DNA of 64,000 nt, taken from NCBI RefSeq assembly GCF_901933205.1, contig NC_044596.1, positions 2,358,001 to 2,422,000 of the forward strand. Reading direction: 5' to 3'. A program made the translations under genes and the position numbers. A model generated the notes under the pieces. It did no database searches. It was not told the origin of the DNA and worked only from the letters and a program-made list of their open reading frames with translations. Below are positions 4,056-34,600 of the stretch, piece after piece (within the stretch, counting starts at the first letter, position 1; each line of letters starts with the position of its first letter). This DNA comes from Camarhynchus parvulus (lineage: Eukaryota; Chordata; Aves; Passeriformes; Thraupidae).

Positions 4056-15939
<11,884 letters not shown>

Positions 15940-19154: not shown

Positions 19155-19224
19155 TTTATTTACATTTCTACCAAAGAAAAAATAAAAAAAAAAGTGCAAT
19201 TAAGAGGGTGAAAGGGTTTTTATT
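19155..19224 (-). terminator. candidate PTH-like gene polyadenylation signals
   Basis: Two minus-strand AATAAA hexamers (plus-strand TTTATT) lie at about 19219-19224 and 19155-19160, roughly 1 kb past the hormone-gene stop codon. Either could end its transcript, but nothing in the sequence proves which. Confidence 0.35.
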
Positions 19225-19854
19225 ATTGACATTTTAATCACTGAGAACTGCATTCAGCACAGTTGAAGCCTATCAGAAACAGAGGAAAATTTTCAGGATT
19301 TAAAACAATGTCCCTACACAATGGAAAAGCTGATATATTTGTAACACACATGACAGATTTAACTTCTGAAAAACTGACTTTACAGTTAAACTGGACCTTG
19401 CTTTGCTTAGACAGAGATGATCTGTTTGTTATCAAATGTGAACAGCAAAATCCAGTGGCACCTCTCAGGAAACACAGGTGGCCTCATGGATCTGTTTTCC
19501 TGCTGCTGTGGGAGCTCTTGGAGAGGATTTCACTTGAGGAAAGAAAAGAAAATGTGGAACAAATGCTCAAAGAGGAACCCTGAGAGCTCATTCTCATCTC
19601 CTGCATCAGCAGAACAAGGAGAACAAGGTGAGTGTCTGGGGCTTTGGCTGAATGGGGATCACTGCCAACTTCTACCTGAAAAAATGAAGGAAAAGCTGAG
19701 GGTCTGAGATGCCTAAAATAGTCTGCATGCTGAAGGAGCAGGGAAAATCCTTTGTAACTATAAGAAAAGTGATTACTAGAGCAGAGTGTGAAATTACTGC
19801 AGGCAGGTGTGAATGGAAGAGAGCCTGTATTCAAAGTTCTGTATTCAGGGACAG

Positions 19855-20242: not shown

Positions 20243-22267
20243 TCAAAGGAGCTTGAAAAGGTGCTGTGGGTTCCAGTTACCCTCTGGGATCCTCCCATCC
20301 AGCTGCTTTAGCGGGAGGAGACCCTGAGCTTCCATCTGTTCCAGCAGCTGGCTGGAAGCTGGAATCCTCAGCAGGCTGGAAGCCTCATCTCCATCGCTGC
20401 TGTTGAAATCGGAGGGGTCTTGGCTCTCCTGCGTGTCCCAGCCGGCACTGGGGAGCGGGGTGTCCCTGCTGCTGGCGGTGTGCACGGCACCCAGGGCGTG
20501 CTGCAGCCACAGCAGCCGCTTCAGCCCTTGCACCGCCCTCCCTTTGTCGTGCAGGAGCTGGTGCTCGGTCAGTGCCCTCCTGCTGCAGGGGAAGGAACGC
20601 GGGGTCAGGGGCGGGAGATGCTGATTTGCATCCATCCATCCATGAATCCATCCATCCATCCACCCATCCATCCATCCATCCATCCATCCATCCATCCATC
20701 CATCCATCCATCCACCCATCCATCCACCCATCCATCCATCCATCCATCCATCCATCCATCCATCCATCCATCCATCCATCCATCCATCCATCCATCCATC
20801 CATCCATCCATCCATCCATCCCAGATGCTTCTCTGCGCTAAGCAAGGAGTGCTGGAGGTGCCTCAGGCTCCAGCAGCCTGTCAGGAAGCCTAAAGATTCC
20901 TGCAGATGGGAAGCTTGTGGGGATTTGGAAGGAATTTAAATTAATTTGGAGATGGTATTTTTGAGTTGTTTTAGATTGTGTGATTTTTTTTTTCTATGTT
21001 CTACATAAGCAGGAAGTGTGGGTTCAGCTCACATCTTCACTGCATGCCTCAGAAGGTCTCAAGACCTCTAGTTATAAGACTTTTTAATGACTTATTAACT
21101 AATAAAACACTGTCAACAAAGATATTTATTAATATATATTACGTTTTATTAATTTATTTATTAATAAAGATTAAGTTTTTTACTTAATCTTTAAACATTT
21201 CATCTTATGGGCTCTGAGCTTCCTTAGCCAATCATGTTATGACACACAAACCTACAGTACTGTACTCTAAAACTCTAAACTTTTTTCTACTTACTTTAAT
21301 ATGTCTCTGCTTTAAACTATAAATCCACATTCTTGCTTCTAGCACCTAAGTTTGGAAGCCTTTTCTAAAGTCTCAGGTCAAATCTTGTGTTTAATTCTAA
21401 GCTTTGGCTTGCAGGCCCAAAGTTCTGAGAGTTCCCTGCATTTCAGATTCCAGCAAAGCTGAAATGCTTTGCTATTCCCAAAGGTGTGCCTTGAATCTCC
21501 TCTTTTTCAAGAAAGGTAAACTGGGGAGACTGACAATTTGATCTTTCCCAAATTTATTTTGCTATTGAAACCTTCTTTTCAGAGGTTTCAATAGCAGAAT
21601 AAAGTTCCCTTTCCATCACCTCAGTGTTACAGAACTCTTGGGTTTTGTCTTTCATTCCAGAGTTGTAACTCAGGAGTAATTTACCTGAAATCACTGATGT
21701 CCATGAAGTAAAACCAAACTCCTATTTTCTTCAGATACGCCAAAATTTTTGAGTCAACTGTTGGCTGAGGAGGGCAGGCTAAATCTCAGATGCAAATATT
21801 TCAGCATTCCAGGCTGCTTAGATAAGATCTCACTGCAGCTATAGGCTCCTACTGCAGATTTGGATCTGAATGGGAGCCTAAATATGGAATTTCAGCATGT
21901 GCCATCTCCATGGCTTCTGCTGAACATCCTTATGTGATTTGCCACACTGTGTTTAAAAGTGACAGCTGAAATGTGGTCCATGTTACACATCTAAAAATGC
22001 AATTGGTCTAATTTTATACTGCAGAGAGGGTGAGGTAAAATGGTGCTGTATCAAATACATCGAATTTTTCTTCTGCCATGCCTGGAGTAACTTAGAGCAG
22101 TGCAGAACACAGCCCATGAAATCAAAAGAGAGCAGTTTTCTAATGATATAAATTAAGTAAAAAGGTAATGTTGCTTACTTTTCAAGGTCTTGGCCCATTG
22201 CAGAACAGGCAAAAAAAAGAATTGCCAAAAATGTAACTGTCTGCAGATATCTCTGGGGCAGGAACAT
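20243..22267 (-). CDS. PTH4: parathyroid-hormone-family prepropeptide (PTH-L/PTH4-like), two coding exons
   Basis: Predicted secreted ligand for PTH-type receptors. Coding exon 1 is 22179-22267 and coding exon 2 is 20243-20582. They total 429 nt, or 142 codons plus stop, with a phase-2 GT-AG junction. Exon 1 starts [13 protein letters not shown] and runs into a hydrophobic core ([12 protein letters not shown]), a classic signal peptide. The junction codon is followed by Arg-Arg and then the hormone N-terminus. Residues 4-12 of the mature peptide read EHQLLHDKG, as in PTHrP; Trp is at position 23, as in PTH; and HTA occupies 32-34, as in PTHrP. The intron just before the dibasic site is the diagnostic position in PTH-family genes. 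The neighbours (STK38, SRSF3) differ from those I know for PTH and PTHLH, which argues for the third lineage. An alternative donor at 20279-20280 could give a longer, respliced C-terminus. Family assignment is strong; the paralogue name is an inference. Confidence 0.88.
20630..20821. repeat. (ATCC)n tetranucleotide array
   Basis: About 190 bp of ATCC repeats with occasional ACCC variants. It sits in the intron of the PTH-family gene and ends only about 48 nt from the acceptor of the hormone exon. The tetramer gives open frames on both strands encoding MDGW and IHPS repeats, which are artefacts. Confidence 0.97.
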
Positions 22268-24149: not shown

Positions 24150-24620
24150 TACAGAATCACAGAATCGCAGAATGAACCAGGCGGGAAAAGACCTTTAAGA
24201 TCATCCAGTCCAACCTATGACCAAACATCTCCTCATCAACTAAGCCACAGCACTGAGAGCCACGTCCAGGATTTTTGTAATCACATCCAGGACAGTGTCT
24301 CCACCACCTCCCTGAGCAGATGATTCCACTGCCCAGTCATTCTTTCAGGTAAGAATTTTTTCTGATGTCCAACCTAAACTCCCTCTGGCACAGCTTAAGG
24401 CTGTGTCCTTTTGTTCTGTTCATGGTTGTCTGGGAGCAGAGCCCAACCCCAACTGAGCACAGCCACCTTTCAGGGAGCTGTAGAGAGTGATAAGGTCACC
24501 CCTGAGTCTCCTTTTTTCCAGGCTGAACAACCACAGCTCCCTCAACCATTCTTCAGAGAGCTGGTGTTCCAAGCCCTTCACCAGCCTTGTTTCCCTCCTC
24601 TGGACGTGTTCAAGCAAGTT
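24150..24620 (-). repeat. CR1 LINE fragment, about 470 bp
   Basis: Minus-oriented CR1. It begins with ACAGAATCACAGAATCGCAG and GATCATCCAGTCCAACC, then passes through CACCACCTCCCTGAGC and CAGGCTGAACAACCACAGC to a CCTCTGGACGTGTTC block. Confidence 0.92.
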
Positions 24621-24649
24621 CAAGTTACTCACAGGAGGTGGTAAATAAT

Positions 24650-24815
24650 AAAATCCCAGAATGGTTAGACTGGAAAGGACCTTAAAGCCCACCATCCCAC
24701 CCCCTGCCATGGCAGGGACATCTTCCACCATCCCAGATTGCTCCAAGCCCATCCAACCTGGCCTTGGACACTTCCAGGGATGGGGCAGCCACAGCTGCTC
24801 TGGGCAACCAGAATA
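24650..24815 (-). repeat. CR1 LINE 3' fragment
   Basis: Minus-oriented CR1 end, starting AATCCCAGAATGGTTAGAC and containing CCATCCAACCTGGCCTTGG. It follows the larger fragment immediately upstream but belongs to a different insertion, since it restarts at the 3' terminus. Confidence 0.9.
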
Positions 24816-25754
24816 AGATCCCACTGGATTTTATTGTTCAGTACCATTTTAATTTAAATCTGTTGATTGTACAGTAAAAAAAAATTCATTTGAAATTTTG
24901 GAAAATGGGAGAAACTCACTAAACAATAAAAGTGCAAATGGTAGTACAGGCAAAAAGTCAACTTACGACATGTTTTGAAACCTTGCAAGCTGACACTACA
25001 CAAGGTTTTATATTTACTGTATGACCTCTAAGCAGGTAATTTCAATAGAATTTGGATACTCAGGATGTGGCTTGATCATTAGGCTGGAACCACTTAAGAG
25101 GACCAGTTCCTGCTTCTCAAAGTGAAAGACAGTGAATGTATTTGTCACCTCTGAGGAGCAATTCCCTGGGAGGATTGCAAAGATCATTTGCTCAGTGTTT
25201 TCTGAAGCCATGGATTCCTTTCCCATAGGCACAGGGCTGTGTTCCTGACAAAGCCAGGCTCAGGTGGATGCAGACACATTGTCCTGCACAGACAGACCCC
25301 TTGCAGGGCTTCACAGCCTCTGTTCTCCAGCTTCCATGGACACCAAATTGCTTTTCATTGTGTTCCTCAAGGCAGCTTGTCTGAGACACCCAATAAACAT
25401 TCCTCATTTCATTACCTGAGTCCTGATCATTAAGGAGAGTGTCACTCATTAGAGTGTGTCACCAATTAAGGCTGACATTCGTTAGCACTTACACTGTTAC
25501 ACCAAATTATCTGCCGTGGATCCCTTGGTTACATCTTCAAGGATTAATGAGCATTGGCCAAAGTCCTGTGAGAAACATCTGGGACAATTCATCCATGAAC
25601 TTCTCAAGTCTCCAGCGTACAATGGGTTTTCATTGGATGCAGTTATGGCATCTCCACCAGAAAAACATCAATTGAGCGACCACAAGCAGAGATGGTGACG
25701 TGGGATGAGGACAGGGGCACTTGGAGAGCGTTCTGGTGGTCACAGCACACTGCC

Positions 25755-30933: not shown

Positions 30934-31682
30934 GTGAGGATCTTCACCCCGGAGGGCGGGGGGGGAGGCGGCTGCCGCGGTCTTGGTGCCCGGCAGGGCG
31001 GATGGAAGCGGCGGCGGCAAACAAAGAGCAGCCGCCATTTTGTAACGCCGGGCCTGGGGCGGCGGCTGCCGCGGCCCTGAGCGGAACCGGGCGGGGAGGC
31101 GGCGGGTTGCCGGGAGGAGCCCGTTCTCGGCCTGTTCCCCGCGGGGTGTGAGGCCAGGCGGGGTGGGAAGTGCCGCGGGGGCGGTGTGGCGCCGGCCCGT
31201 CCGCCAGTGGCAGCGCCGGTCCCTCAAAGCGCGCCGAGGAGCGGCTCCGGAGCGAGTCCCCGAGCATTGCCCGCGGGGCTCGGCGGGAGATGGCGCTGCC
31301 CACCCCCTTGGTGCGCGGATCGCCCTGATCCTAATCCCGATCCGGGAACAATGGAGCCTCCCCCGCGCAGCGCCCTCTGCAGACCCCCGTGCGCTAAGCG
31401 GGAAAAAAGGCGGAAAGACCTTCCCCCCACAAATCTAAACAGTAAAAGTAACCGAAATTCCTCGAAATAGTGAATTTTGATCACACTGTGGCATACCAGC
31501 TATCTTGTTGGGTTTTAAGTTTTCTCTCACCCCGCTCGCCCGTTCCAAACAGTGTCTCCATCACAATGCATCACTGCTCAAGTTTCAGGGGGAAGTAGCC
31601 AACAGAGTGATTTCCCTTGGAAGTCAACAAGCACATGCGCTGGGTTAAATATATGTGAACTTCTTTTTTTCTTGTCCTAGCA

Positions 31683-34600
31683 ATGCATCGTGATTCTTGT
31701 CCGCTGGACTGCAAGGTCTATGTGGGTAACCTTGGAAACAATGGCAACAAAACAGAATTAGAGCGAGCTTTTGGCTACTATGGACCACTGCGCAGTGTAT
31801 GGGTGGCGAGAAATCCTCCTGGGTTTGCCTTTGTGGAGTTTGAAGATCCCCGAGATGCAGCTGATGCAGTAAGAGAGCTAGATGGAAGGTAAAGTGTGCT
31901 TGGCTTGGCTGGTCAAAATATGGGACATTATAGAAGTGATACAGTTTTAAATTGTGAAACTTAAACTGCGGGACTAAAGTCTTGATGCATTTCTTATGCG
32001 CTGTTTTGTATGGTACTATAAGGGTGTTCTTATGGTGCAGCAATGGAATCCCAGAATGGTTTGGGCTGGAAGGAACCTCAAAGATCATTCAGTCCCACTC
32101 TCCCCGTGGGCAGGGACGCCTTCCACTGTCCCAGGCTGCTCCAGGTCCCATTCAGCCTGGCCTTGGGCACTTCAGGAATCCAGGAGCAGCCACAGCTGCT
32201 CTGGGCACCCTGTGCCGGGGCCTGCCCACCCTCACAGGGAATAATTCCTTCCCAATATCCCACCTATCCCTGCTCTCCTTCATGAATAGCATTGTAATGT
32301 TTAATTTTGCATTTCCCAGTTGAACTCCCAAGTTAGGAATTATTTGCATCTCTTTGTGTGTTAATTAAATTGCAGATGGTGTTATTATAAAGAGGTAAAA
32401 CTGATTGTGGAGACTCTCCTTTGCTCTTTCCCTGCCTGCTTTACTGGCACAGCAGTTTTGAGAAGCAGCCAATCCTTTTGTCTGCCAAAGAATCCCAGAA
32501 TGGTTTGGGCTGGAAGCCCATCCGGTTCCACCCACTGCTGTGGGCAGGGACACCTTCCACTGGGTAGCCTGGGCTGCTCCATGCCTGTCCAACCTGGCCT
32601 TGGACACTTCCAGGGAAGGGAAGTGCTCCAGCTGACTCTGGGCACTGTGCTTTGATGACAAAACATTTTTCCCTTTTGCATTGTTTTTCCACCTTGTGGA
32701 TCACGTATCCTTTATTCCACGCTGCCTTCTCCCTGGCAGTGCTAACCAGAGTGCCCCTCTCCCCAGAACGCTGTGTGGATGTCGCGTCCGGGTGGAGCTC
32801 TCCAACGGGGAGAAGCGGAGTCGGAACCGCGGCCCCCCTCCGTCGTGGGGCCGGCGCCCTCGGGATGACTATCGCAGGAGGAGTCCCCCTCCTCGGCGCA
32901 GGTACCTGGGCACAGTGCACTCCTAGAGCCCTTGGCACAGTTACCACCTAGCATCCTAGGAGCAGGCTTGTTAAAGGCATGTTGATGGATGGCATTCATC
33001 TATCTGATCATGATTCGGAAATGACAGATGCTAAAAAAGGAAAAAACCCAAACCACCCCCCCACAAAATCGAGGTGAATTTGAGTTGTGTTGAATGTTGT
33101 TGGCTTTTGTCCATAGGTGACTGTGCAGTTGGTAGTCAGTGCCCTCTGTCCTGGGCTTATTCTCCTTCCTCTTAAAACCTGCTCATCTTCTAGTCACACT
33201 TTGCCTTTCTTCCCCATACTTCAACTTAGGCTGTTCCTTTCCTTTACTCCATATTGGCAAAACATGACATACAGCAGTATAGCATTTCCATACCAATGGG
33301 TTTTTCCACTTTGTTTGCAGAACTAAAATCCTTCCCAAGCAGGCAGCTGTTTAATAATAGATTGAGTAACAGTTGCTCTAAACATCTGGAATCTTGACAC
33401 TTTAGTGTTAGCGTGGAAATAAAGCATCGTGTGACGATCCTGTCACTTGAAGTTTGCAAACCCAGCTCTAGCATATAGCAGGATTTTTGGGAACTGGCAC
33501 GTTCTTGGACCCAGACTAGTTTGTCTGGCAGTTTAAGTGTGCACCGTGGTTTTTACAGGACTGAATTTGCCTGTGGCAGGTGAGTGAAGTCCTCCTGAGC
33601 CAGGGTTTCAAAGCTTACCCTTTTGCTGTTGAAAAAAAAAATAACACATTAGGAGTATTTGTTAGCTAATAGATGGTTGTACTGATGGCTTGTTTTTCAT
33701 TTTTTTTATGCTTTTTTGGTCCATCTATTAATAAAAATGAACCCGTTACAGAGTCACCATCATGTCTCTTCTCACCACCCTCTGAGTCTGCATTAGCCAG
33801 CCAACTAGCCCTTTCAGCGTCATGTGACCAGCGCGCCCCATGCAGCTTGGCTGGTGTCGTTTCACATGACCCAGGCATGGCCAGTCGTCAGGTTGCACCG
33901 CCCTTTGGTTCCCGAGCATGCTGTTTTCTCTCAGCCTTCTCTCCAACCTTAACCAAATCGGCAGCAGCCACCTCGACCGCCCACACATTCCCGGCCAATC
34001 AGCTCAGCTGTTTATTTACCAAATGTCTTCACAACAACTACAGCAGCAGCCTTCGGCTAACAAAAAAGCAGGAAAAATCCACAACACCCCCTTCGCCAAC
34101 CAACTAAATACAACGCAACATCTGGCAAAACCTTTTCAGCAAATTCTTCTTGGCAGTCAGTCCGGCAGCCTCACCTCACCATTTCTAGCTTGTTGAAACC
34201 AAAGACTTGTAAGTTTTTCCTGCTTATACAGTTTACTGCTGGTTAAAATAAGGAGTAAGCGGCTTATAAGTAATTACTTTTCTCAATCAAAGGCTGGCTG
34301 TGCATAATTGAGTGGTAACGTACATATGTTGCTTGAGAAAACTTTTAAGGGTGATATGGAAGCTCTTACACTGTGAATAATGTAAAAACCAGGATATTTG
34401 CATGTGAGATGCCAAACTAAATTTTTAATAAAGCTCTAACAAATGTAGCTTTTCCTTGCCACAAAAATCCTATCACCTTTAAATGGTTTTACTAACAGTT
34501 TTCAAAACTTAAAACAATTACTTTTTGGGATGAACTGGGCCGAGCTAAGGTTATATTTTTTAATTTTTTATTTTTTATAAGAAAATAGTCTAAACACACT

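What the first reader, a model, noticed from the sequence alone, without database searches (positions are those of the whole stretch)
20243..22267. A parathyroid-hormone-family gene hidden between STK38 and SRSF3
Two minus-strand exons join in phase to give a signal peptide, a dibasic site and a 34-residue hormone-like N-terminus. The mature peptide mixes PTHrP-like features (EHQLLHDKG at 4-12, HTA at 32-34) with the Trp23 of PTH. The intron lies just before the dibasic site, as in known PTH-family genes. Neither PTH nor PTHLH sits in this neighbourhood in mammals as I know it, so this is probably the PTH-L/PTH4 lineage reported from fish, frog and chicken and described as lost in placental mammals. 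Simple repeats on both sides and inside the intron would make automatic gene prediction likely to miss it.
Basis: partly seen in the sequence, partly recalled or inferred. Interest (0 to 1): 0.92.

Follow-up and report, generated by a model that had tools for sequence, protein, structure and literature searches.

The report
Songbird copy of the PTH4 gene
This is the songbird copy of PTH4 (PTH-L), a parathyroid-hormone relative already known from fish, frogs and chicken but lost in placental mammals; the gene is real and ordinary, though songbirds seem to be changing its hormone part unusually fast.

Summary
The two exons are real. Joined, they give a 142-residue precursor with a signal-like start, a dibasic site and a PTH-family 1-34 region (Pfam Parathyroid, E 7.6e-14). 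The gene lies between STK38 (minus) and SRSF3 (plus). The same genome holds separate PTHLH and PTH loci, and a tree puts the gene with bird PTH4. By orthology it is a secreted ligand of PTH1R. Beyond the finding: a CAGCAG tandem acceptor gives NRR or KR before the hormone; an alternative tail exon is possible; and in passerines the hormone region changes faster than in other birds, with Leu2 here instead of Val2. The listings of searches showed no paper on that. Expression, receptor binding and codon-level selection could not be tested; the receptor search in this genome did not complete.

The parts
22179..22267 (-). PTH4 coding exon 1: start codon, signal-like stretch [25 protein letters not shown], pro-sequence QDLE; ends in phase 2 at donor AAAA|GTAAGC
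   Evidence: 90% over 30 aa to Coccothraustes P0001 and Nesospiza P0003
20243..20582 (-). PTH4 coding exon 2: rest of the split codon, RR, hormone 1-34, C-terminal region, stop TGA
20474..20575 (-). Hormone 1-34: [34 protein letters not shown]
   Evidence: counted from the sequence
20580..20585 (-). Tandem acceptor CAGCAG: the first AG gives ENRR before A1, the second EKR
   Evidence: both forms occur among predicted passerine proteins (Empidonax P0010 NRR; Neopelma P0026 and Prinia P0007 KR)
20583..22178 (-). Intron of about 1.6 kb with a 48-copy 4-base repeat at 20629-20821
20279..20280 (-). Possible alternative donor GAGG|GTAACT inside exon 2, at the Gly-Asn-Trp codons
   Evidence: the Prinia model P0007 runs from IPQG into the downstream block. 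Prediction only
19160..19532 (-). Possible last exon or 3' UTR: pyrimidine tract and AAG acceptor ending at 19533, alternative tail ending APTAAGKQIHEATCVS, poly(A) signals at 19238, 19224 and 19160
   Evidence: Prinia 83% over 24 aa, Malurus 73% over 37 aa in another frame. Prediction only
7797..9682 (-). Flank: two STK38 kinase frames, 9398-9682 and 7797-7976
   Evidence: PDB 6bxi STK38 E 1.4e-28 for the first; the second was picked by the recalled motif LSDFGLC and had no Pfam hit
31659..31889 (+). Flank: RRM exon of SRSF3
   Evidence: PDB 2i2y E 1.6e-45; 9asq SRSF3 E 3.5e-45

Best explanation
It is the intact orthologue of PTH4 (PTH-L) in a passerine bird, probably near the Thraupidae. The transcript is spliced to give a secreted precursor; the signal peptide is removed, a convertase cuts after the dibasic site (NRR or KR), and the helical 1-34 peptide activates PTH1R through cAMP, PTH3R only weakly, with effects on calcium or phosphate handling and skeletal tissue. 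Shown here: gene structure, family, position, separate PTH and PTHLH. Inferred from chicken and zebrafish work: expression, secretion, cleavage, receptor, physiology.
For: Pfam and PDB matches; 97% identity to the partial Nesospiza acunhae PTH4 over 73% of the query and 89% to full-length Coccothraustes P0001; three PTH-family loci in the genome, this one alone on C26; tree with PTH (100/100) and PTHLH (99/100) each one side of a branch and the window next to Nesospiza and Coccothraustes PTH4; STK38 and SRSF3 flanks; chicken PTH-L with SFRS3 on chromosome 26, found by RT-PCR in several tissues, its 1-34 peptide raising calcium flux (PMC3009671); chicken PTH-L(1-34) EC50 7.7 nM on PTH1R (PMC3483286); AlphaFold helix over hormone residues 4-32.
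Against: No transcript evidence could be examined. The same paper that gives the EC50 says that chicken PTH-L has a low capacity to activate either receptor and may have another one (PMC3483286 discussion). Residue 2 is Leu where PMC3009671 lists Val2 as conserved, and residues 8-10 read LHD where PMC4354418 says that the PTH-L peptides studied have MHD. In one search the PTH4 rows were not one side of a branch (2 changes; 1 in 24% of bootstrap trees): the two ratite rows sit at the unrooted base. No fish, frog or reptile PTH4 was in the tree. The AlphaFold model is poor (mean pLDDT 55, pTM 0.30). PTH receptors were not checked in this genome.
Confidence: 0.87

Rival explanations
1. PTH4 by descent, but in passerines it is being eroded or retuned: the frame is open, yet the peptide no longer serves the ancestral PTH1R role, as may have come before the loss in placental mammals.
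For: Mean pairwise differences over 1-34: oscines 4.01, suboscines 2.67, non-passerines 1.35, against 0.88 and 0.99 for PTH; 20 matched passerines PTH4 4.41, PTH 1.14; Fitch changes 1-34 against signal 117:117 in passerines, 18:59 in others, Fisher p 3.6e-5; residues 1-7 changed in 17 of 64 oscines and 1 of 34 non-passerines; the window and four named oscine rows that reach the end (P0001, P0002, P0008, P0020) stop about 20 residues before the non-passerine end.
Against: The rise is not confined to the core: residues 35-46 go from 2.11 to 5.08 and the signal from 3.42 to 4.18, and against residues 35-63 the contrast is weak (117:320 and 18:93, p 0.026). In passerines 1-34 still changes far less than 35-63. 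The tree is poorly resolved (5 of 110 inner branches starred), rows are cluster representatives of predicted proteins, and only 3 non-passerine species were matched.
Confidence: 0.4
2. A divergent PTHLH or PTH copy rather than PTH4.
For: EHQLLHDKG and HTA are PTHrP-like; the best PDB match is PTHrP.
Against: PTHLH and PTH are separate loci; tree; position; named hits.
Confidence: 0.02
3. An untranscribed relic whose frame is open by chance.
For: No expression evidence here; PMC3009671 found no chicken PTH-L EST, though RT-PCR was positive.
Against: Splice sites, dibasic site and the whole frame are intact, predicted orthologues occur across birds, and 1-34 is more conserved than what follows.
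Confidence: 0.04

Closest known systems
Chicken PTH-L (PTH4), PMC3009671
   Same: Two exons and one intron, SFRS3 as neighbour, PTH-family 1-34 region (text; the chicken letters were not seen)
   Different: Against the consensus of 34 non-passerine PTH4 rows the window has Leu2, Leu8, Val15, Leu22, Gln25, His26 and Ala30 and lacks about 20 C-terminal residues
Nesospiza acunhae PTH4 (P0003) and Coccothraustes protein (P0001)
   Same: 97% over 73% of the query, same 1-34; and 89% over the full length
   Different: P0003 is a partial 103-residue model; P0001 reads EQR before A1 and differs at 1-34 by T3S and Q25R
PTHLH (PTHrP)
   Same: EHQLLHDKG and HTA motifs, PTH1R ligand
   Different: Separate locus on C16 with a longer basic tail
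PTH
   Same: Trp23, dibasic site before residue 1
   Different: Separate locus on C5, starts SVSEMQLMHN
Zebrafish Pth4 (PMC5645135)
   Same: Named member of the lineage; made by hypothalamic neurons that affect mineralization (abstract)
   Different: No sequence comparison was made here

Membership tests
PTH family (PF01279) | Match to the Parathyroid profile above the curated cut-off | tested here: met
   52.8 bits against 22
PTH family (PF01279) | Signal peptide and a dibasic site directly before residue 1 | tested here: met
   Read from the sequence; no signal-peptide program was run
PTH4 / PTH-L | Groups with PTH4, apart from PTH and PTHLH | tested here: met
   with 17 of 120 PTH4 hits, all birds; PTH and PTHLH each one side, PTH4 itself not (2 changes)
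PTH4 / PTH-L | Linked to SRSF3 in tetrapods | tested here: met
   SRSF3 at 31659; chicken and Xenopus linkage in PMC3009671
PTH4 / PTH-L | Two coding exons, intron just before the dibasic site | tested here: met
   two exons in chicken (PMC3009671); intron before the SRR motif in teleosts (PMC4354418)
PTH4 / PTH-L | MHD at residues 8-10, said of all PTH-L peptides then studied (PMC4354418) | tested here: not met
   LHD in the window. Leu8 is in 29 of 64 oscine and 6 of 14 suboscine PTH4 rows and 0 of 34 non-passerine rows, so the motif does not define the family in passerines; locus and tree decide
PTH4 / PTH-L | Activates PTH1R | not testable with these tools
   Chicken peptide only (PMC3483286)
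PTH4 / PTH-L | Expressed as a spliced transcript | not testable with these tools
   No RNA-seq; the lgn proteins P0034, P0072, P0087 and P0096 read through the intron end
PTHLH | Long basic tail; the genome's PTHLH locus | tested here: not met
   PTHLH is on C16

The most novel reading that the evidence does not exclude
In passerine birds, most of all songbirds, PTH4 has escaped the constraint that holds its receptor-activating end nearly fixed in other birds. Leu2 replaces the family's Val2 in all 9 listed representatives of sparrows, finches and nine-primaried songbirds and in the window, MHD became LHD in many rows, and the precursor's tail was shortened. PTH4 is being eroded or turned to a new receptor role there, an independent replay of what ended in its loss in placental mammals.
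Probability: 0.4. Interest if true: 0.55.

Novelty: already known. Interest (0 to 1): 0.3.

Why it matters
The gene confirms a known lineage in one more bird. If the passerine acceleration holds, songbirds would be a living case in which the decline of PTH4, known in placental mammals only as a finished loss, could be tested with peptides on PTH1R and PTH3R.

Tried and rejected
Rejected: chance frame, PTHLH copy or PTH copy. Rejected: the Prinia tail as proof of a conserved coding exon, since Malurus matches the same DNA in another frame. Led nowhere: Val2 literature; NAGNAG with parathyroid hormone, 0 papers; Pfam on five further frames, no hit. Not answered: the own-genome search for the hormone-receptor domain PF02793.

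Rows and limits: one search listed 120 of 144 hits. One search matched 113 of 120, four lgn rows among them. One search left out the 7 lgn PTH4 rows (79 passerines, 34 others); its PTHLH control (16 of 16 identical over 1-34) holds three lgn rows. (tree), 46 and 56 also left out P0020, a frame-shifted Ficedula model. The PTH control used 69 of the 73 named bird rows (P0314, P0315, P0317 and P0318 were left out). One search used 17 of 120 PTH4, 15 of 120 PTHLH and 16 of 90 PTH hits; four PTHLH rows (P0147, P0165, P0227, P0239) went in uncut. In one search the non-passerine counts for residues 1-10 cover only 30 of 34 rows (my script overwrote the other clade), so I do not use them. Matched species were picked by hand from the capped lists. 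Passerine, suboscine and family labels are mine, from genus names (recalled).

Full report
What is there. On the minus strand, exon 1 (22267-22179) and exon 2 (20582-20243) join in phase to a 142-residue precursor. It begins with a signal-like stretch, passes QDLE, is split by the intron inside the codon before a dibasic site, and continues with [34 protein letters not shown]. Pfam gives only the Parathyroid family above its cut-off (E 7.6e-14). Among solved structures PTHrP chains match best (E 2.9e-8), PTH chains weakly (E 0.06 and above).

Where it is. The window is part of contig C26 of an unnamed 1.05 Gb genome. The frame at 9398-9682 minus matches STK38 best (PDB 6bxi, E 1.4e-28); the exon at 31659-31889 plus is SRSF3. 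The Parathyroid profile finds three places in the genome: C16, C26 (this one) and C5. Translation shows C16 to be PTHLH and C5 to be PTH, and searches with each return proteins of those names.

What it is. The protein search found 144 hits and listed 120; 104 of these are named PTH4 or parathyroid hormone 4-like, 9 bear other or no specific names, 7 come from unnamed lgn contigs, and all the named organisms are birds (hand tally). The nearest are Coccothraustes (89%, full length) and Nesospiza acunhae (97% over 73% of the query), a thraupid. In the tree PTH (100/100) and PTHLH (99/100) are each one side of a branch, and the window sits with Nesospiza and Coccothraustes; the PTH4 rows as a whole are not one side (2 changes; 1 in 24% of bootstrap trees), because two ratite rows fall at the unrooted base. 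Fish and frog PTH4 were not added, the three protein searches being used.

What was known. PMC3009671 (abstract, passages and the whole Results section) describes chicken PTH-L: two exons and one intron; no ESTs, but RT-PCR signal, most abundant in cartilage, also in pituitary, thyroid, parathyroid, muscle, hind brain and kidney; SFRS3 as neighbour on chromosome 26; no PTH-L in the human region on chromosome 6. STK38 is not mentioned there. PMC3483286 (passages) gives chicken PTH-L(1-34) an EC50 of 7.7 nM on PTH1R and little action on PTH3R, yet its discussion calls the peptide's capacity to activate either receptor low and leaves open another receptor. PMC5640766 (passages) uses the name PTH4 and dates the loss to after the eutherian-metatherian split. 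PMC4354418 (passages) says that PTH-L peptides studied have MHD at 8-10 and repeats the hypothesis, from the 2010 work, that PTH-L gradually lost its calciotropic activity before its loss in mammals. PMC5645135 (abstract) ties zebrafish Pth4 neurons to mineralization. The finding is therefore known in kind and place.

Mechanism. Shown: gene structure, intact frame, family, locus. Inferred from orthologues: expression, secretion, cleavage, PTH1R activation. The exon 2 product models as a helix at residues 6-34, that is hormone residues 4-32, with pLDDT means of 66, 76, 75 and 52 for its first four tens; the model as a whole is poor (mean 55). The acceptor CAGCAG allows NRR or KR before A1. Among predicted passerine proteins NRR stands in 58 of 64 oscine and 13 of 14 suboscine rows and EKR in one of each; the models labelled isoform X1 (Empidonax, NRR) and X2 (Neopelma and Prinia, KR) would fit use of both acceptors. 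A donor inside exon 2 (intron from 20280) and an acceptor before 19532 could give another tail. Prinia's model does this, but Malurus matches the same DNA in a different frame, so the block may be conserved 3' UTR. One search found no AATAAA or ATTAAA between the stop and 19238, which fits a last exon there.

An unexpected pattern. Of the PTH4 rows, 34 of 34 non-passerines have Val2 and Met8; of 64 oscines 11 have Leu2, one Glu2, one Gly2, and 29 have Leu8. All 9 listed representatives of Passeridae, Fringillidae and the nine-primaried families (membership recalled) have Leu2, as has the window; so do Brachypodius, Melanocharis and two unnamed lgn rows. Mean pairwise differences over 1-34 are 4.01 in oscines, 2.67 in suboscines and 1.35 in non-passerines; PTH gives 0.88 in passerines and 0.99 in others. 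In 20 passerine species with both genes listed PTH4 differs by 4.41 and PTH by 1.14, PTH4 the more in 176 of 190 pairs; in the 3 matched non-passerines PTH4 differs by 0 and PTH by 2. Fitch changes in 1-34 against the first 24 precursor residues are 117:117 in passerines and 18:59 in the rest (Fisher p 3.6e-5). Within one naming style ('PTH4 protein, partial') residues 1-7 are changed in 15 of 59 oscines, 1 of 10 suboscines and 0 of 14 non-passerines.

Against this pattern. The rise is not confined to the hormone core. Residues 35-46 go from 2.11 in non-passerines to 5.08 in oscines, and the signal from 3.42 to 4.18 (3.75 to 5.42 within the partial models). Against residues 35-63 the Fitch contrast is weak, 117:320 and 18:93 (p 0.026). 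The counts treat changes as independent, rest on a tree with 5 of 110 inner branches starred, and use cluster representatives of predicted proteins. PTH, the control, lies on another contig, so a rate change of this chromosome in passerines is not excluded.

Literature on the pattern. One search (parathyroid hormone, PTH4, birds) found one paper, the chicken receptor study. One search listed 20 of 39 papers, none with both 'passerine' and 'PTH4'; one search listed 12 of 87, none with 'songbird'. Suarez-Bregua et al. 2017 on zebrafish pth4 is cited within PMC5640766 but was not read.

Verdict. Observation confirmed, interpretation supported, novelty low; the passerine acceleration is a lead for a codon analysis. 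On re-reading my calls I lowered two odds: the main explanation from 0.90 to 0.87, for the low receptor activity of chicken PTH-L told in PMC3483286, and the erosion reading from 0.45 to 0.40, for the rise in residues 35-46.

Noticed in passing
window 20580-20585 (-): Tandem CAGCAG acceptor. NKR stands before A1 in 21 of 34 non-passerine rows, NRR in most passerine rows; an AAG-to-AGG change of that Lys codon would itself create the second AG (inferred, no relative's DNA seen).
   Followed up: partly
window 22087-22140 (-): 18 residues of intron translation are identical to the start of a Malurus PTH4 model (P0117): a conserved intron block near exon 1, or slow DNA change.
   Followed up: no
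window 19160-19600 (-): Block downstream of the stop matched by Prinia and Malurus models in different frames, with poly(A) signals; 3' UTR or alternative last exon.
   Followed up: partly
window 24423-24830 (-): Frame with [16 protein letters not shown] and [14 protein letters not shown], which looks like a CR1 LINE fragment (recalled); no Pfam hit.
   Followed up: no
L003 (C5): The PTH exon of this genome is closer to Poecile (94%) than to the listed sparrows Melospiza, Melozone and Spizella (88-91%); sparrow PTH seems to have diverged.
   Followed up: no
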